DNA from: Zunongwangia pacifica
GTDB taxonomy: Bacteria; Bacteroidota; Bacteroidia; Flavobacteriales; Flavobacteriaceae
Direction of reading: 5' to 3'
Assembly: GCF_023499215.1 (NCBI RefSeq)
Contig: NZ_JAKHSK010000019.1
Location: forward strand, 1-64,000
DNA length: 64,000 nucleotides
The notes below the pieces were generated by a model. It was not told the DNA's origin. It searched no databases and saw nothing but the letters and a program-made list of their open reading frames with translations. Each line of letters opens with the position of its first letter. The stretch's first letter is position 1. The translations under genes were made by a program, and so were the position numbers. Shown one piece after another: positions 36,905-51,692 of this stretch.

Positions 36905-37267
36905 ATGAAAAAAAACGTCATTTGCTCACTCGTACTTCTATTCATTTCCTGTTCAGAAAACAAGAATGTGTCGCCTTCAGAAACTGCCAAGATTGTTGCA
37001 GAAAGCTTTTTCTCAAAAGATGAATCAGTTCTAAAAAAACATACCACATCAGAAGGGTATGCCAGTTTGATTACGGTTCAAAATATGATGCCTGATTCTG
37101 ATAAAGACATTGAGGTAGAAATTTTAGATGAAGTTGTAGATGGGGAAACTGGTTGGGTAAAATATACCACCTCTTATGATGGAAAGTCTGGTGTTTTCAA
37201 ATTGATAAAGGAAAATAGTCAATGGAAAGTCACTAATAAAGGACCAAGAGAAAAAGGGCCTTTTTAA
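36905..37267 (+). CDS. small lipoprotein, NTF2-like (DUF4878 type), 120 aa
   Basis: The lipobox LLFISCSENK puts the lipidated Cys at about residue 16. The rest is a short cystatin/NTF2-like fold (PSETAKIVAESFFSKDESVLKKHTTSEGY, GETGWVKYTTSYDGKSGVFKLIKENSQWKV), as in DUF4878 lipoproteins. It lies 7 bp after traN, so it is the last gene of the tra operon. A role in surface exclusion is possible but not shown. Its end overlaps by 35 bp the remnant on the opposite strand. Confidence 0.75.
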   Translation: MKKNVICSLVLLFISCSENKNVSPSETAKIVAESFFSKDESVLKKHTTSEGYASLITVQNMMPDSDKDIEVEILDEVVDGETGWVKYTTSYDGKSGVFKLIKENSQWKVTNKGPREKGPF

Positions 37268-37664
37268 TAGACTGTATTATTTTTTTTGCGAGATTAACTT
37301 CCCAATAACCCCTTGTTCCCCCTTGACGCTCTATATATCCAGCATCCTTTAAGTTGTTTAGATGCTTCTGAATTGCGGATTCATTTACATTTAGGACTTC
37401 TGCTATTCCTGAACGGCTTATGCGGTTATCTGCGGCAATCAATTTTAGTACTTGCTTTTGCCAAAGGGTCAATTCTGAAATAGCATCTATGATTTTTTCG
37501 ATTTGACCACCTTTTAGACCACCCCTTACACCACCTATTTGGCCACTTTCTTCAACAGCAGTTTCTCTGGCCATAAATGTCATTCTAAGAAAGTTATCTG
37601 AAAAACTAAAGCTCTCTTTTCCATAGTGTTTCAAAATACGCGGGATACCAGAGTCCTTTAGGCG
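37233..37664 (-). pseudogene. C-terminal remnant of an AlbA_2-type ATP-binding regulator
   Basis: In frame, the fragment reads RLKDSGIPRILKHYGKE, which matches the conserved GIPRI region of AlbA_2/divergent-AAA proteins. Next come the hinge (GGVRGGLKGGQI) and winged helix (ISRSGIAEVLNVNESAIQKHLNNLKDAGYIERQGGTRGYWEV) of the same family. The N-terminal nucleotide-binding part is missing; a stop occurs at 37665-37667. The C-terminal tail also runs on past the usual end. It abuts the restriction-module gene, suggesting that a deletion or insertion of that module removed the rest. A short stand-alone repressor starting at 37634 cannot be excluded. Confidence 0.6.
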
Positions 37665-38278
37665 CTACTCAAAGAAGTGAAATCAAACATAAAATGTTTT
37701 ATTAACATATCGTCAGGATGCTCTGATTCGTAATACTTGTCGTGAAAATGATAGGGTTTGAGTTTCAAAAATTCAAGTTCCCTTTCGTCTTTTTTCAAAA
37801 GTTTATTAACCCCATTTACGGTTTTGTCTAAATCTCCTTCGAGTACATACCCAAGTAGGCATCCGTTCTCATATTTATTAGTAACAAAACTGTTAATTCC
37901 GGTATCAATATATCGTCGTTTTAAACCAGAATCTTTTTCCTTAAGGTTTTTGGCTTCCATATGGTATTCGAATTCTAGGGATGAATTTATAGTTACCAAT
38001 CTAAGATCTATTCTAGGAAATTTCGCTGCAAAACCTTTTTCCTTTTCTATATCGTCTTTCGGCAAATGCTGCTCAACATTTGTAACGATTCGCCACTTTA
38101 ATCTTAGTGGATTTTCCTTAATGCATTTGTGCAATTCCCAAGTAATGTCATTTTCATCCCAGTTGAGTTTGATGACTTTTGTTTCCATAGCTGAAACATA
38201 AGATTCTGTTATCAGCTGAAAGCATTTTTCTTCAAAGCCTCTTTTAAAGCTGGCAACTATGACTTTGTTTAATCCCAT
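37658..38278 (-). CDS. candidate PD-(D/E)xK restriction endonuclease, 206 aa
   Basis: The pattern FPRIDLRL (Asp91) ... FEYHMEAKNL (Glu108-x-Lys110) fits the active site of a PD-(D/E)xK nuclease, followed by a conserved-looking block YIDTGINSFVTNKYENGCLLGYVLEGD. It starts 3 bp after the stop of the DNA methylase gene, so the two are translated together. The rest shows no known domain. Together they look like a restriction-modification pair carried by the ICE. The nuclease call is inferred from motif and context. Confidence 0.6.
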   Translation of the reverse strand: MGLNKVIVASFKRGFEEKCFQLITESYVSAMETKVIKLNWDENDITWELHKCIKENPLRLKWRIVTNVEQHLPKDDIEKEKGFAAKFPRIDLRLVTINSSLEFEYHMEAKNLKEKDSGLKRRYIDTGINSFVTNKYENGCLLGYVLEGDLDKTVNGVNKLLKKDERELEFLKLKPYHFHDKYYESEHPDDMLIKHFMFDFTSLSSA

Positions 38279-38281
38279 TTA

Positions 38282-41200
38282 CTATACCTCATTAAGAATT
38301 TCCAGTATTAATTCCGAAGCGTCTTCAATCGCCATAGATTGAGTCCAGAATCGTCTCTGATTGGGACGAACAATAAAAATCTCGTTGCCTGTTTTATAAT
38401 TTAATTTTTTTCTGAAATAGATGTTAGTTGCCTTCTTTTGCCATAGTACCTTGTCGAGTTGTCTTAGTTCATTATCTAAATTTTCCTTAGATTTTATTAA
38501 ACCTCCCTTTTTAGTTCCAAAAGACAATTTAATCATCATCAATGGTGAATAGTATGGCATTCTAAAAGTTGTAGCACCACAAATGATTTCTTGATTATTA
38601 AGAAATTCGTTTATTTCCGAAGAGATTCGTTTTGCATAGTTTGTTACATCTGCTATCGGTAATAGAGCTTTGGATTTTTGCTTATTTTCGAATAGGTCAA
38701 GACTATATTCCAGACTATCATTTATTATGACCATTTCTCTATCAGTCATTCCCAAAACATCTTTCAAAATTACCTTGTCAATCTTTTCTTCTAACTGGGA
38801 ATAATCCTTTTTCAGAAAATCTGATTTAATCCCACTCATAATTTTATCAAAATGACCTACAATTTTCGATAAGTTTTCTTGATTGAGCAAATTTATAATT
38901 GCTGGCGTATCCATCACTTCATCCATAAAAATTTGCTCTCTTTCTATTCCCCAGGAAGAACTAACCATAAATAAAATATAGGTAGTAATTTTTGAGTTGA
39001 AAATAGCTGTCAGCGCTTTCTTTTCATCACTCTCTACATTTCCGTTAAATATGTAACAGGCTGTTGTACAATATGCGAAGTAATCAATATATGATGCGGT
39101 TAACTTTCTATTCTTCTGTCCTTTTTTAAATAATACATATGGCGGTTTAAACAGATTTTGGTCTATATTCCTAAAATACTTATCATTCTTTTGCAAGGCA
39201 TCAGTAGGTGTATAAAATCTTTGGATGTACCTTGAATTAATTACTTGCTCTGGAATAAAATCTTGATGCTCTCTGTCTCCATTTAGTCCTGCCCTAGGCA
39301 AGCTCCAACCATTTTTGTTGTTTTTCAAAAAAGCCTCCATTGAGACTGTTTTCTTTGATATTCTCTTGATAATATCGAAGTCGCTCATTCCGCCCCACAT
39401 AGCAACCTTCCAAATTTTAGTGGATGGTTTTTGACATTCCTCTCTAGGAAGATATTTTAAATCAGTACTATCAATACTTACACCTTCAATAACATTTGAT
39501 TTTATATATGTTTTTGGGGCGTAATAAATAATTGTGTTAGATTTCTTTTTAGGGGCATTTTTTCTGTAAAATATTACGCTAATCGGTCCAGTTGCTGAAC
39601 CAAATAATTGACCCCCAAAATCCTCAGGCACTTTCCTTAGAATTGAAAAATTATATATCTTTTCTACATAGCATTCATTAAAAAGCCATTGTCGAAATGA
39701 TTGATATTTACCATTAGTGTTTGTCAATACCTTAGTATTAAATATTAAGGCAATTTCGCCATTCTCTGCAATTTTGGTTGCCTTGTGTAAAAACGGTAGA
39801 ACCATTTCCTTCGCGAATCCATATTTATCGCTATAATCTCGAATAGATTGAGATAGATTCTTAGTGCCGAAAGGCGGGTTTCCAACCACCAAATCAAACT
39901 CGATTTGTTCTACTTCAGGATTTTGTTGAATAGTATCACTTCGGAATAGATTATTACCTTGTTCAACTAGAGTCTCATCCAAAGGGTCATTTATCAAATA
40001 TGGTAAGCGATAATCTTTGTTTTGCCAAATCGTCTTAGGATTCAAGTTGTCAACTAAAGCCAGATAAAGACTAAAAGCTGCTACCTTGATGGATTGGGGA
40101 TGTATTTCTATACCAAATATATTATCCGTTAGTAGCTTCTTCAGCTTATTAAAATCCGTAAGTTTTTCCGAATTGGCATTTTCGTAACGCTTTACCAAAC
40201 GTTTGAAACTTTCAACCAAAAAAATCCCCGAACCACACGTTGGGTCTAAGACCTTAATGTTAAATTCTTTTTCTGTCCTAGAGATTGGTAATTTCTCATT
40301 TAATATGAGTTCAACTAGTGACGGTGGTGTATAATAAGTGCCAGTATCTTGTTTTAAAGTAGGGTTTATTTCAGCCAAGAAATTTTCATAGATTTCACTT
40401 AATAATTCTATTTGAATAATGCTAAAATCGAATAGGCGTAGATCTTCAAAAAGATTCTGCTGTAAGGTATTATCATTACCGTTGATAAAACACTTTCGGA
40501 TAATTTTTAGATGTTCTCTAGAAATTGACTCATTGCTATCTATGGTAAACACATTACCATTAAAATATTCTTCCAGTTTCTTAAATAGTGAGTATGTTTT
40601 ATCTGCATCGTCTAGAATGTCAAAATAAGACTTCGCTCCTTTTTTGATTTCTGAATAGAACTTTTCATCGGTTGCGCCTCTATCCTCTAAATACAATAGG
40701 AATAGAGAACGCATTATTATTTTATGAATTAGGTCTATTTCTAAGCCTTCCGCTTGTAATTGCTTAGCGGTATAGGTAAGGCTCTCTACAAGGTATTTAT
40801 CAACCCTTCGCTGAAGGCTTATCTTCTTTCTAATCTCATAAGCTTCTTCTAATGTCCATATGATACCTGTATCAATAGCAATAGTGGAAAAAAGATTTTG
40901 AAGCTGTGTGAGTTTGGTTTTATCTTTGAGCTTATAAGACTCAATTTCGAGCGTTTTAAGTTCCTTCTTATAGTCAAAATCATCTGATTTGATTATAAGA
41001 GGTTTCTCGGCACAATTGTATATACGGATTTCAGTTTCCGAATAAACGTAAAGAAAAATTACCTTTTTGAAGTTCCAGATTTTTTTTTGAGTCTTTGCAA
41101 TTTGATGAAGAGCACGGTCATCAAATTTTTCAACCTTTTTTAAAAAAACCGCAGGATAACTATTATGATTTTCGTCGGTACTGAAATAAATTTCATCAAT

Positions 41201-41320
41201 ACCGAAGTCTTTCACTTGATTAATTACAACTAGCTGACTTTCAGAAATTTGATTAGATTCCGAAGTAACAGAGACGGCCTTGTCCAAGCCTAAATTTTCT
41301 ATTATATCAAAATCAATCAT
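38282..41320 (-). CDS. N6-adenine DNA methylase, Eco57I/type IIG-like, 1012 aa
   Basis: SAM-binding motif VLDPTCGSGIFLVE lies at about 357-370 and the catalytic NPPF of an N6-adenine methylase (VVGNPPFGTK) at about 476-485. The N-terminal about 150 residues (KIWNFKKVIFLYVYSETEIRIYN) resemble the leading domain of Eco57I-type enzymes; I see no clear nuclease triad there. The C-terminal about 350 residues would be the target-recognition part (IYFRKKLNYKTGNEIFIVRPNQRRFW). It forms an operon with the candidate nuclease and has its own promoter candidate (41372-41379). Confidence 0.85.
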   Translation of the reverse strand: MIDFDIIENLGLDKAVSVTSESNQISESQLVVINQVKDFGIDEIYFSTDENHNSYPAVFLKKVEKFDDRALHQIAKTQKKIWNFKKVIFLYVYSETEIRIYNCAEKPLIIKSDDFDYKKELKTLEIESYKLKDKTKLTQLQNLFSTIAIDTGIIWTLEEAYEIRKKISLQRRVDKYLVESLTYTAKQLQAEGLEIDLIHKIIMRSLFLLYLEDRGATDEKFYSEIKKGAKSYFDILDDADKTYSLFKKLEEYFNGNVFTIDSNESISREHLKIIRKCFINGNDNTLQQNLFEDLRLFDFSIIQIELLSEIYENFLAEINPTLKQDTGTYYTPPSLVELILNEKLPISRTEKEFNIKVLDPTCGSGIFLVESFKRLVKRYENANSEKLTDFNKLKKLLTDNIFGIEIHPQSIKVAAFSLYLALVDNLNPKTIWQNKDYRLPYLINDPLDETLVEQGNNLFRSDTIQQNPEVEQIEFDLVVGNPPFGTKNLSQSIRDYSDKYGFAKEMVLPFLHKATKIAENGEIALIFNTKVLTNTNGKYQSFRQWLFNECYVEKIYNFSILRKVPEDFGGQLFGSATGPISVIFYRKNAPKKKSNTIIYYAPKTYIKSNVIEGVSIDSTDLKYLPREECQKPSTKIWKVAMWGGMSDFDIIKRISKKTVSMEAFLKNNKNGWSLPRAGLNGDREHQDFIPEQVINSRYIQRFYTPTDALQKNDKYFRNIDQNLFKPPYVLFKKGQKNRKLTASYIDYFAYCTTACYIFNGNVESDEKKALTAIFNSKITTYILFMVSSSWGIEREQIFMDEVMDTPAIINLLNQENLSKIVGHFDKIMSGIKSDFLKKDYSQLEEKIDKVILKDVLGMTDREMVIINDSLEYSLDLFENKQKSKALLPIADVTNYAKRISSEINEFLNNQEIICGATTFRMPYYSPLMMIKLSFGTKKGGLIKSKENLDNELRQLDKVLWQKKATNIYFRKKLNYKTGNEIFIVRPNQRRFWTQSMAIEDASELILEILNEV

Positions 41321-41371
41321 ATCGAAAGTTGTCCAAAATATCTGATAGTTAGTTACATACTAAATTAACTC

Positions 41372-41379
41372 CAAAGGTA
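41372..41379 (-). promoter_or_regulatory. candidate -7 box of the restriction-modification operon
   Basis: On the minus strand the sequence is TACCTTTG, fitting TAnnTTTG, with the methylase ATG 52 bp downstream. The -33 position has no clear TTTG. The gap 41321-41525 holds nothing else that I can identify. Confidence 0.4.
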
Positions 41380-41525
41380 CAAATGATTTTGCGATTTTGA
41401 TAATCGAAGTTTTACTATTATTTGGATATATTCCATAAAATCGGATAGGTAATTGATTATCCAATTAAATGAACTGTAATTAATAAAAGTGTTAATGATT
41501 TCAATAAAAATGAAAGCACAGCATA

Positions 41526-43109
41526 TTATTTAAATATCGACCGCACTTCTTCATAAACACGCTCAAAATTAGCATTCATATCAGCAATTGAATATTGCTT
41601 GGCTTCTTCTGGTAGTTTCCTGTTTATTTTAGATAGTTTGAACTGCACTTTCTTATCCTTCCCATCAGCATAGGTAATGAATTCGCCTTGTTTCAACCTA
41701 AAGAAAACATCAGCCCGTATTTTCGGTATTTCCTTTTCGCCTGTAGTAATTCGGGTGTCAAAATCAAGGTTATGACCACGACTTATACTTTTGGTTGGAT
41801 CCTTGATGATTTCAAAAAAGCGTTCGTAATATTTAGCGGTGTCCGGGTCGTTGACCTTTCCGAAAAACTGATAGGATAAATTACTGAGAATCGCTTTGCT
41901 TGCCTTGTCGCCATACATCATATCGTTCTGAATTTTGTCCTGCATCACGTAGATGGTCGCTATATCATAGCTACGCAACGTTGCAGGAATGCGATGCATA
42001 TTCAATAGTCGAATGGTCGGTGCTTCTTCCATCAATAAGAATGATGGTCGAGAATTGCGCACACTCATTTGCTTGGTAATGGTGTGGATAATGGTGGCGA
42101 TTACTGGCGAATAAGACGTTTCAAATTTGGGATTATTTACGATAGAAATTACTGCTGGATTTTCCTCATTATTGATATTGAGCGGTACTTCATCTGCTGA
42201 CAAAGCCATAAAAATCCGTTGTGTACTAATTCGTTTCAGCGCATTGGCCAGCGTGCTTTTAACGCCTGCGGTCTGCCTATCGGAATCCTTTCCACTAATA
42301 AAAGCATCTGCCATCGCCTTCGATGTGGTGTTGGTTTCTAAAAATTGGATAAGGCTGTCCGTGTCCAGATATTGGTAAATGGCAATCAAATGGGGAAGTG
42401 TACAGAACTGTGGATAGGTGGTTTTCAGTTTCCAAATCAACCCACCAATCAAACCTTCCGCAGCATCATTAAAGAATTTTGTTGTTCCGGTAGCGCCACT
42501 TTCTCTTTGTTCTAAAAGGTTTTCGATTAATACCCTTGACACTTCGTTTACGCTTTCCTCGTTCTCTAAATAGCGTGGCGCAATAGGATTTACCCTGTGG
42601 ATGATTTTATCAAAAGAAATAACCTTAAATGGGATATCGCTATCCTTAAAAAGTGGGTGCGCCATTTCGGTCAGTTCAAAATCCTTATAGTCGTGGATAA
42701 TTCCGCAAAATCCTTCTTTACGGAAATGTTTTAAAAAACCATAAACCACGCTTTCGGTCTTGCCACTTCCGGCAGAGCCGATAACAGATGCCCCACGTTT
42801 TACGTTTTCCAGTTTAAAACTTCCGTTATCTGTGGCAAAATTAACGCGGTATTTACTATCGTCATTTTTTGGCTTGTCCGTTTTGTGCAAAAAAACGTAC
42901 AGTCCTGTATTAATTAGCATCATCGGACAACCTAAATAAAGCAGGGTCAATATCAACCGATTTTCTTCGGAAAGATAAAAAATCAGACCTGCGATTAGCA
43001 GTATATTCAGTGCGAACGCATACCGACTGATCCTGAAAAACGAATAAAATAGTAAACTGGTCAAGCCAATAACCGAGAGTACTGTAAAAAGATTATCTAT
43101 TTCCATCAT
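41526..43109 (-). CDS. mobC: VirD4-type coupling protein (MobC/TraD-like), 527 aa
   Basis: Three N-terminal hydrophobic segments (about 8-75) anchor it in the inner membrane. Walker A GSAGSGKTES is at about 111-120 and Walker B SFLLMEEAPT at about 355; IYVMQDKIQNDMMYG follows. This is the type IV coupling ATPase that delivers the relaxosome to the channel, called MobC in Bacteroides elements. It is encoded 6 bp after the relaxase gene. Confidence 0.9.
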   Translation of the reverse strand: MMEIDNLFTVLSVIGLTSLLFYSFFRISRYAFALNILLIAGLIFYLSEENRLILTLLYLGCPMMLINTGLYVFLHKTDKPKNDDSKYRVNFATDNGSFKLENVKRGASVIGSAGSGKTESVVYGFLKHFRKEGFCGIIHDYKDFELTEMAHPLFKDSDIPFKVISFDKIIHRVNPIAPRYLENEESVNEVSRVLIENLLEQRESGATGTTKFFNDAAEGLIGGLIWKLKTTYPQFCTLPHLIAIYQYLDTDSLIQFLETNTTSKAMADAFISGKDSDRQTAGVKSTLANALKRISTQRIFMALSADEVPLNINNEENPAVISIVNNPKFETSYSPVIATIIHTITKQMSVRNSRPSFLLMEEAPTIRLLNMHRIPATLRSYDIATIYVMQDKIQNDMMYGDKASKAILSNLSYQFFGKVNDPDTAKYYERFFEIIKDPTKSISRGHNLDFDTRITTGEKEIPKIRADVFFRLKQGEFITYADGKDKKVQFKLSKINRKLPEEAKQYSIADMNANFERVYEEVRSIFK

Positions 43110-50393: not shown

Positions 50394-51692
50394 TTATTGA
50401 TAATGCACCCTTGTTTCGGCCTTGTCCGTGGTGTTTAATTTACTGCGCAACGAACGCATATCCGATGACACTTTTTGTTCGATGACCCTCGCGTAGATTT
50501 GCGTTGTGGAAAGCTTTGTATGCCCCAACAATTTTGAAACGGTCTCAATGGGCACCCCGTTGGAAAGCGTGACGGTGGTTGCAAACGTATGCCTTGCCGC
50601 GTGGAACGTAAGCTTTTTATTAATTTTTAGAATTGCCGCAATTTCCTTCAAATACTTGTTGATTTTCTGATTGGAAAACACCGGCAACAGTTCTTCTTGC
50701 TTGCCTTTAGGTTCTTGGTCATACTTTTTCAGGATGTCAAGGGCTTTATCCAACAGGGGGATTTTAACCGCCTCACCGTTCTTTTCCCTCTTAGTAAATA
50801 TCCAGTAATCCCCATCAATGCCACGTACAATATGGTCATCACAGAGCAATTTCACATCAATATAGGACAAGCCCGTATAACAGGCAAAAACAAAAACGTC
50901 CCTTGTTTTCTGGTGCATCCCTTTGGAAAGCTTACCGGATTCCAAAACTTCAAGTTCCGACTGGGATAAAAATGCCCGTTGGTGTTTTGTGAACTTTAGC
51001 GAGAATCTCACAAAAGGGTCTTTCTCGATCCATTCCAATCGAAGTGCAAGGTTCATCATCTTTTTCAAACGTTCCAGATGTTTCATAACCCCGTTGTTCT
51101 TTAGGGGCTGGGAACGGTTTATGGATTTTCCGTTGCGCAGGAACTGTTCAAAGTCAATGATGAATTTATAGGAAAGATGTTTCAGGAAAACGTCATTGGT
51201 TTTCAATTTGTGCTTCAAATACCTTTTAATGTAGCGTTCCGTAGTGAAATAATTTTTCAGCGTTCCCGGCTTGAGTACCGAAACCATATTCTTGTTGTGG
51301 TAGGTAACCAGTTGAAGCAGCGATTTGTGCTGTTCATCTTCCCCAAGGTAACGGGCCTTGATTGCTTGGGCGGTAACATATTTGGATTCGCCCAGAAGCT
51401 GTTTGTGGCAAGCCAACAAATCGGAATACACTTGGTCAAGGTAAACATTTAGTGCCTTGCCATCGGAAGTCCTAAGTGTTGACCTTTTGGAACGGGTATC
51501 CCAATAGGTAACCGATGTAAATCGTTTTAAACTGATTTCTGCACGTTTTCCATCGACCGTGATTCGGGCATAAATGGGGGCGAAATCATCTTTTTTCTTG
51601 GCCATACTCAGCCAAAAATGAATGGTAAAAGTCTTTGAAGTCTGCATAAACTCTCGCTTTAAGTGAATAATCGATTTGTTTACGAAAGTCAA
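50394..51692 (-). CDS. int: tyrosine recombinase (ICE integrase), 432 aa
   Basis: An N-terminal arm-binding domain (FAPIYARITVDGKRAEISLKR), core-binding domain (LKNNGVMKHLERLKKMMNLALR) and catalytic domain are complete. Visible catalytic residues are FHAARHTFATT (about 361-371), LGHTKLSTTQIYARV (nucleophile Tyr about 398). The Arg I position reads TGLSY, as in IntDOT, which also has Ser there. The ATG 15 codons in (51647) is an alternative start. It lies 183 bp from the tRNA-Pro 3' end, its target. It is homologous over its whole length to the IS-broken integrase at the left. Confidence 0.93.
   Translation of the reverse strand: MTFVNKSIIHLKREFMQTSKTFTIHFWLSMAKKKDDFAPIYARITVDGKRAEISLKRFTSVTYWDTRSKRSTLRTSDGKALNVYLDQVYSDLLACHKQLLGESKYVTAQAIKARYLGEDEQHKSLLQLVTYHNKNMVSVLKPGTLKNYFTTERYIKRYLKHKLKTNDVFLKHLSYKFIIDFEQFLRNGKSINRSQPLKNNGVMKHLERLKKMMNLALRLEWIEKDPFVRFSLKFTKHQRAFLSQSELEVLESGKLSKGMHQKTRDVFVFACYTGLSYIDVKLLCDDHIVRGIDGDYWIFTKREKNGEAVKIPLLDKALDILKKYDQEPKGKQEELLPVFSNQKINKYLKEIAAILKINKKLTFHAARHTFATTVTLSNGVPIETVSKLLGHTKLSTTQIYARVIEQKVSSDMRSLRSKLNTTDKAETRVHYQ

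What the first reader, a model, noticed from the sequence alone, without database searches (positions are those of the whole stretch)
37658..41320. Candidate two-gene restriction-modification (defence) module inside the transfer region
A 1012-aa Eco57I-like adenine methylase is followed 3 bp later by a 206-aa protein with a D-x16-ExK pattern. The pair has its own promoter candidate and sits between the tra operon and the mob genes, where sister ICEs should have no break. The small partner shows no known restriction-enzyme family to me. It could be an under-described nuclease family that travels with Eco57I-type methylases, and it may also stabilise the ICE as a selfish pair.
Basis: inference. 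Interest (0 to 1): 0.75.

Follow-up and report, generated by a model that had tools for sequence, protein, structure and literature searches.

The report
Split restriction system with separate nuclease
A mobile DNA element carries a two-gene defence system in which one protein reads and marks DNA and a separate small protein, so far unnamed in the databases searched here, is most likely the scissors that cut unmarked foreign DNA.

Summary
In detail: a 1012-aa gamma-class adenine methylase (38282-41320, -) is followed 3 bp later by a 206-aa protein (37658-38278, -). The small protein's family has no name in Pfam, NCBIfam, PADLOC or PHROGs. E42, D91, E108 and K110 are invariant in 29 of 29 aligned members, and profile comparison places the family near the HsdR N-terminal nuclease domain (HSDR_N_2). 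The partner follows the methylase in 13 of 13 close loci, 15 of 16 Bacteroidota places (the 16th is cut by a contig end) and 27 of 28 plasmid loci. The methylase shows no conserved nuclease motif of its own; Type IIG controls show PD-x13/14-ExK in 13 of 13 readable N-termini and no partner in 11 of 11 readable 3' flanks. Relatives exchange the methylase's recognition region (24-38% identity between flanks of 84-99%) while the nuclease stays up to 97% identical, so it is probably guided by the methylase. I read it as a split Type IIG-like system: an M~S protein plus a motorless nuclease in trans. Methylation, cleavage and defence are untested; AlphaFold models failed.

The parts
38282..41320 (-). 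M~S protein, 1012 aa: N-terminal domain without conserved nuclease residues (about 1-135), further N-terminal region, gamma-class adenine methyltransferase core (motif I at 359, NPPF at 481), exchangeable recognition region (about 641-950), conserved C-terminal tail (951-1012)
37658..38278 (-). Nuclease subunit, 206 aa, stand-alone PD-(D/E)xK-like protein; E42, D91, E108, K110, Y123, H195 invariant in the 29-member alignment
38432..39400 (-). Recognition region of the methylase gene (residues about 641-963), exchanged between relatives; 44-56% DNA identity to L001 over 38501-39400, 96-100% on the 3' side from 38400 on through the nuclease gene
41321..41445 (-). Conserved upstream region: inverted repeat TGGA-N5-TCCA in 14 of 14 and TACCTTTG exact in 11 of 14 upstream sequences (Bacteroidota -7-like; label recalled), three of the 14 outside the ICE site
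37233..37634 (-). Remnant: C-terminal about 117 aa of a resident SLFN_AlbA_2/HATPase_c_4/HTH gene whose N-terminal part is missing here; neighbour, probably not part of the system
36905..37267 (+). Last gene of the transfer operon, one border of the variable site (context)
41526..43109 (-). Type IV coupling protein, other border of the variable site (context)

Best explanation
A two-gene restriction-modification system of split Type IIG-like build. The large protein binds a DNA site through its C-terminal recognition region and methylates adenine there with its gamma-class core. The small PD-(D/E)xK protein has no helicase motor and does not choose the site; it docks on the methylase, perhaps on the conserved C-terminal tail, and cuts near sites that lack the mark. 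Because one recognition region serves both activities, exchanging that cassette changes methylation and cleavage together and the nuclease need not change. The module travels with its own upstream region and sits in a defence cargo site of a Bacteroidota ICE. Shown here by sequence: the gene pair, linkage in two phyla, invariant catalytic-type residues, profile similarity to HsdR N-terminal nucleases, absence of a conserved nuclease motif in the methylase, cassette exchange with a constant nuclease. Inferred: complex formation, methylation, cleavage, defence, docking site.
For: Linkage: 13 of 13 close loci; 16 of 18 Bacteroidota places of the nuclease family have a related methylase beside them (two of these by weak matches, L048 4e-5 and L049 6e-7; the 18 include the window), the other two show a transposase-like ORF there; 15 of 16 Bacteroidota methylase places (window included) have the partner, the 16th ends at a contig end; an HMM built only from Bacteroidota nucleases gives one hit, downstream on the same strand, in 26 of 28 plasmid loci and no other among 2151 ORFs, and one of the two misses has a partner with D, EAK, Y, F. 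Nuclease: E42, D91, E108, K110 in 29 of 29, in register with HSDR_N_2; hhalign 73% to HSDR_N_2 and 37% to Mrr_cat, where these two known families give 64-81% to each other; at most 7.7% in 400 column shuffles, at most 0.3% for five unrelated alignments. No conserved cis nuclease. Guidance: methylase residues 641-950 are 24-38% identical to 12 of 13 relatives with flanks 84-99%, the nuclease is 97% identical to that of L001 across this exchange, and no nuclease residue is fixed differently between versions A and B.
Against: No biochemistry. Both AlphaFold models are useless (pLDDT 31.5 and 35.2). The HSDR_N_2 match is moderate. The small family shows no profile similarity to the N-terminal domain of the Type IIG controls (0.2%; that alignment was mixed with non-N-terminal pieces), so it is not simply a cut-out IIG R domain. 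A loose D...(D/E/Q)xK string occurs somewhere in the first 170 residues of 19 of 31 paired methylases, at differing places. Three nuclease positions (134, 173, 192) are disjoint between versions A and B and one (168) is fixed differently between A and C; version A has only two sequences. The nuclease could cut without sequence preference. Whether the methylase is active is unknown.
Confidence: 0.8

Rival explanations
1. Orthodox Type II pair: the 206-aa protein is an independent, sequence-specific endonuclease that matches the methylase's site.
For: Size and gene order are usual for Type II R-M; nuclease and methylase are separate proteins.
Against: The recognition region of the methylase is exchanged while the nuclease stays 97% identical, with no fixed difference between versions A and B. 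The nuclease would lose its protecting partner at each exchange.
Confidence: 0.08
2. A self-sufficient Type IIG enzyme (R-M-S in one chain), as the PADLOC model name says, with the small protein as an accessory.
For: PADLOC REase_MTase_IIG PDLC03603 covers residues 111-1004 at 1.1e-50. Loose D...(D/E/Q)xK strings occur in some N-termini.
Against: No D...ExK is conserved in the aligned N-terminal domains and their profile has no similarity to HSDR_N_2 or Mrr_cat (0.3% and 0.2%), while the Type IIG control profile gave 31% and 9% and has PD-x13/14-ExK in 13 of 13 readable N-termini. The one PDLC03603 hit at 1e-60 in 138 genomes (G064) also has the partner.
Confidence: 0.05
3. The nuclease acts mainly against cells that lose the ICE, with the methylase as antidote (selfish maintenance), defence being secondary.
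For: Plasmid location of 28 of 28 fetched distant copies, by choice of collection, and the ICE site of 10 of 13 close ones.
Against: Not tested; the chemistry would be the same split R-M, so this is a rival about benefit only.
Confidence: 0.05

Closest known systems
Type IIG R-M enzymes (Eco57I, MmeI, BcgI kind)
   Same: Gamma-class adenine methylase joined to a C-terminal recognition region; PADLOC labels the large protein so; specificity changes by exchange of the recognition part
   Different: In Type IIG the R domain is permanently at the N-terminus of the same chain (PMC3874165, passages seen); here the nuclease is a separate 206-aa protein and the N-terminal domain has no conserved catalytic residues
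Type I R-M (HsdR, HsdM, HsdS)
   Same: Separate nuclease subunit whose profile resembles the HsdR N-terminal domain, guided by an M+S unit
   Different: No translocase/helicase in the 206-aa nuclease or in another gene of the module; M and S are one chain
Type IIH, AhdI
   Same: Small separate nuclease and a gamma-class methylase
   Different: AhdI has a Type IIP-like REase and separate M and S subunits (PMC4081073, passages seen)
HVO_A0006/HVO_A0237 of Haloferax, a proposed split Type IIG
   Same: Idea of a PD-(D/E)xK protein supplying in trans the missing R domain (PMC4389544, passages seen)
   Different: There a fragment of a IIG N-terminus at another locus; here a distinct family in a conserved two-gene unit
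Engineered M-half-S fusions plus HsdR
   Same: An M~S chain active with a separate R subunit (PMC6158711, passages seen)
   Different: Engineered, and HsdR keeps its motor

Membership tests
PD-(D/E)xK nuclease superfamily (small protein) | Conserved E (helix), D and (D/E)xK | tested here: met
   29 of 29 for E42, D91, E108, K110; E42 nearly invariant in another alignment
PD-(D/E)xK nuclease superfamily (small protein) | Profile similarity to known members with catalytic residues in register | tested here: met
   hhalign 73% HSDR_N_2, 37% Mrr_cat, controls far lower; none to the Type IIG control N-termini, 0.2%
[quoted passage not shown]
   pLDDT 31.5
Gamma-class N6-adenine methyltransferase (large protein) | Motif I before NPPF/Y/W motif IV, then recognition region | tested here: met
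   DPTCGSG 359, NPPF 481, variable region 641-950; Pfam N6_Mtase, Eco57I
Type IIG | R domain in the same chain, at the N-terminus | tested here: not met
   positive control 13 of 13 readable N-termini. Loose strings in single sequences, not conserved
Type IIG | One specificity module serves cleavage and methylation | tested here: inconclusive
   Inferred from cassette exchange with a constant nuclease; not assayed
Type I R-M | Helicase/translocase in the R subunit | tested here: not met
   The nuclease is 206 aa with no Pfam hit; no helicase gene between the borders of the module
Type IIH (AhdI) | Separate M and S subunits | tested here: not met
   M and S are one chain
Type IIH (AhdI) | Sequence-specific R acting on its own | not testable with these tools
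   Cassette exchange speaks against it; not assayed
BREX (PglX) or MADS | NCBIfam curated cut-off | tested here: not met
   BREX_1_MTaseX 61.8 bits against 500, MAD2 55.9 against 720

The most novel reading that the evidence does not exclude
A separate, widespread architecture of restriction-modification: an M~S chain with a motorless HsdR-N-like nuclease in trans, found in Bacteroidota and on alphaproteobacterial plasmids, hidden because the methylase is filed as self-sufficient Type IIG and its nuclease as hypothetical protein. It would be the natural counterpart of the engineered M~S plus R intermediates proposed between Type I and Type IIG.
Probability: 0.6. Interest if true: 0.68.

Novelty: new variant of a known kind. 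Interest (0 to 1): 0.6.

Why it matters
If true, a group of enzymes labelled single-chain Type IIG are in fact two-component, with a nuclease family that the defence library searched here does not hold. The pair gives a testable intermediate for how Type I, IIG and IIP systems interconvert, and a natural tool in which new specificities come from exchanging one cassette while the same small nuclease does the cutting. It also shows one ICE site between mobilisation and transfer genes holding many different defence modules.

Tried and rejected
AlphaFold models of both proteins were too poor to use (pLDDT 31.5 and 35.2; alignments of 14 close relatives), so no fold search was run. Family scans of the small protein gave nothing; 14 diverse members gave only scattered single weak hits to unrelated families. 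Viral contigs: no relative for three queries. Phages: no match at E 0.01 for the window's small protein. PDLC03623 as a Type IIG control was rejected because both its hits are members of this group; PDLC03610 served instead. The idea that the small protein is a copy of the methylase's N-terminal domain found no support (hhalign 0.1%). The HTH ORF 37233-37634 as a third gene of the system was rejected: it is the C-terminal end of a resident gene present at 451-459 aa in 12 and at 379 aa in one of the sister sites, some of them near-duplicates, and it follows the pair in only 3 of 14 modules. A promoter call from TACCTTTG alone was rejected.

Rows dropped: L042 from the 29-member alignment (my extraction returned nothing) and 12 close orthologues left out of it; L141, L144, L155, L162 from the Mrr set; 8 of 36 plasmid records not fetched, which have nearly the same scores as fetched ones; of 120 site ORFs of at least 100 aa, 83 were scanned, after leaving out seven loci (five near-duplicates and the two with the orthologous pair) and 15 ORFs of 100-191 aa. 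Six of 40 sites did not close within the stretch fetched, one of them with only 1379 bases on view. L121 is counted among the 34 closed ones although its T4CP match lies far from the fetched edge. The family tallies show only the first 25 families (of 280 and 33).
Full report
What is there. On the minus strand, 38282-41320 encodes 1012 aa and 37658-38278 encodes 206 aa, with three bases between. The large protein is a gamma-class adenine methylase: Pfam N6_Mtase 3e-24 and Eco57I 1.7e-20, PADLOC REase_MTase_IIG PDLC03603 over residues 111-1004, motifs DPTCGSG and NPPF. The small protein matches nothing in Pfam, PADLOC, NCBIfam, PHROGs or the PDB sequences.

A real, linked family. In genome contigs 13 loci encode close relatives of the small protein, Flavobacteriaceae by their record titles (family assignment partly recalled), and all 13 have the methylase directly upstream. 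A profile of 14 diverse members finds 16 of 395 Bacteroidota genomes, 18 places, the window among them; 16 of the 18 have a related methylase beside them, two by weak matches, and the other two, L045 and L050, show a transposase-like ORF there (my reading). In the opposite direction the methylase finds 14 of 395 genomes, 16 places, the window among them; 15 have one search place just downstream. The sixteenth, L128, has 198 bases after the methylase and its locus is shorter than match plus flanks, so the contig ends there. The plasmid collection holds 36 records with a relative of the methylase, 35 in genera that I recall as Alphaproteobacteria and one from an uncultured bacterium. I fetched 28 of them. 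An HMM made only from Bacteroidota small proteins hits 26 of the 28 once each, downstream on the same strand, and nothing else among 2151 ORFs. In most the hit directly follows the methylase; in L030, L194 and L201 another annotated ORF lies between. Of the two misses, L199 has a 237-aa partner with the same D, EAK, Y and F pattern; L200 has a methylase annotated at only 426 aa and no partner. Where the records annotate the partner they say hypothetical protein, once Fis family transcriptional regulator.

What the small protein is. In a 29-member alignment E42, D91, E108, K110, Y123 and H195 are invariant; G127, F131 and H187 hold in 27. In an earlier 14-member alignment E42 was nearly invariant, and in a five-member one D91 was misplaced for L102. 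The pattern E, D, ExK is that of PD-(D/E)xK nucleases. Profile comparison supports it: hhalign gives 73% to HSDR_N_2 (N-terminal nuclease domain of Type I R subunits) and 37% to Mrr_cat, with E, D and ExK in register in the HSDR_N_2 alignment. The two known families give 64-81% to each other; the best of 200 column shuffles was 7.7% for HSDR_N_2 and 0.6% for Mrr_cat; five unrelated alignments (four parts of the methylase and one site gene) gave at most 0.3%. The AlphaFold model of the small protein was not usable.

The methylase lacks a conserved nuclease of its own. In the N-terminal domain of 20 aligned methylases no D...(D/E)xK is conserved. A loose D...(D/E/Q)xK string does occur in the first 170 residues of 19 of 31 paired methylases, mostly the close orthologues, at differing places, and in 12 of 31 there is none. 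A profile of 23 such domains shows no similarity to HSDR_N_2 or Mrr_cat (0.3% and 0.2%). As a control I took Type IIG proteins found with another PADLOC model, PDLC03610, in 15 of 138 genomes. Their N-terminal profile gives 31% to HSDR_N_2 and 9% to Mrr_cat. They carry PD-x13-ExK or PD-x14-ExK in 13 of 13 genes whose N-terminus is on view; 11 genes have at least 1.4 kb after their stop on view, and no hit to the small family occurs in any of the 20 loci (410 ORFs). So the nuclease is in cis in one group and in trans in the other. Against a simple cut-out origin, the small family shows no similarity to that control profile (0.2%), although the control alignment was mixed with other pieces. The model PDLC03603, which calls the window methylase Type IIG, has one hit at 1e-60 among 138 genomes, in G064, and that methylase also has the partner. 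A C-terminal tail of the type KP..R.W..S.A..DA is present by a simple pattern in 35 of 45 paired methylases (14 of the 45 are near-identical orthologues) and in 0 of 14 ORFs from Type IIG loci, some of which are not the enzyme. It is a candidate docking site; that is inference.

Who chooses the site. Against 13 relatives, residues 1-640 of the methylase are 87-99% identical and 951-1012 are 84-95%, but 641-950 are 24-38% identical to 12 of them and 84-93% to L007 only. There are three versions: A (window, L007), B (L001-L006, L008) and C (L009-L012, with L013 more distant). Between the window and L001, DNA identity is 97-100% over the first kilobase of the gene, declines, is 44-56% over 38501-39400 and returns to 96-100% from 38400 through the nuclease gene. 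The nuclease is 97% identical to that of L001 (other version) but 85% to that of L007 (same version). No nuclease residue is fixed differently between A and B; positions 134, 173 and 192 are disjoint between A and B, and 168 is fixed differently between A and C. Nuclease identity follows the methylase backbone (r 0.63) more than the recognition region (r 0.33) over 91 pairs, which are not independent. An enzyme that reads its own site could hardly stay so constant while its protecting methylase changed specificity; the simplest account is that the nuclease is guided by the methylase. That the exchanged region sets specificity is itself inferred from its position and variability.

Where it sits. 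The flanks are conjugation genes of a Bacteroidota ICE, with an integrase at 50394-51692. In 10 of the 13 close loci the pair lies next to the same T4CP gene, and in nine of these the transfer operon follows; L007, L009 and L011 are elsewhere. The T4CP is found in 96 of 349 genomes of the family. I fetched 40 of its places; 34 close within the stretch and hold 0.4-9.5 kb of differing content. Among 83 of 120 site ORFs scanned there are Type III R-M genes, TrlF, Ppl, IteA and IteS, BPTD_3080, a caspase-like protein and others. The module's left border is an upstream stretch of about 120 bp shared by all 14, with an inverted repeat; its right border is the nuclease stop, followed in the window, L001 and L012 by the end of a resident SLFN_AlbA_2/HATPase_c_4 gene that is longer (379-459 aa) in 13 other sites.

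How it most likely works. The large protein recognises and methylates; the small one docks and cuts unmodified DNA near the site, without ATP-driven translocation since no motor gene is present. The gene order and three-base gap suggest coupled expression. Methylation, cleavage, complex formation and phage defence are inferred.

Comparison with what is known (author names partly recalled). Loenen and colleagues state that in Type IIG the R domain is permanently at the N-terminus (PMC3874165, passages). A Type II review describes Type IIG as one chain and Type IIH as a IIP-like nuclease with M plus S (PMC4081073, passages). Bower and colleagues made M~S fusions that restrict with HsdR (PMC6158711, passages). 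Ouellette and colleagues suggested a split Type IIG pair in Haloferax (PMC4389544, passages). I saw no paper on the present family in the listings of eight searches; beyond the four papers above nothing was opened. REBASE could not be searched, so it may list such partners.

Verdict. Real, well linked, and in my view a split Type IIG-like R-M with a new nuclease family: a new variant of a known kind. Not a new principle, since R-M with separate R is old, but an architecture that current annotation appears to miss.

Noticed in passing
G000 contig C7, about 82826-86500 (loci L052, L138): The same genome carries a second, distant copy of the two-gene system (methylase about 30% identical).
   Followed up: partly
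window site 37268-41525 and sister sites L084-L123: Cargo site between T4CP and the end of the transfer operon, 0.4-9.5 kb in 34 closed cases, with many defence genes: Type III R-M, TrlF, Ppl, IteA/IteS and others.
   Followed up: partly
window 37233-37634: C-terminal remnant of a resident SLFN_AlbA_2/HATPase_c_4/HTH gene, 451-459 aa in 12 and 379 aa in one of 13 sister sites that match it.
   Followed up: yes
window 41422-41436 and same place in L001-L013: Inverted repeat TGGA-N5-TCCA about 100 bp before the methylase start in 14 of 14 upstream regions; possible operator, kept across all three recognition versions.
   Followed up: partly
plasmid loci such as L024-L026, L029, L031, L035, L190-L192, L202: A 61-70 aa ORF lies just upstream of the methylase in many alphaproteobacterial copies; genes annotated XRE (L033, L198) or MerR (L193, L196) in others. 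Possible controller gene.
   Followed up: no
L201, 3638-7332: Here the methylase core and the C-terminal part with the tail are separate ORFs followed by the nuclease: natural M and S split or a broken gene; left as it stands.
   Followed up: no
G385 contig C1, about 69192-76122 (L208, L222, L131, L047): A single-chain Type IIG gene and a two-gene split system lie next to each other in one genome.
   Followed up: no
window methylase residues about 781-806: A short conserved stretch (S.GIERE.I) lies in the middle of the exchanged region, as if there were two variable halves.
   Followed up: no
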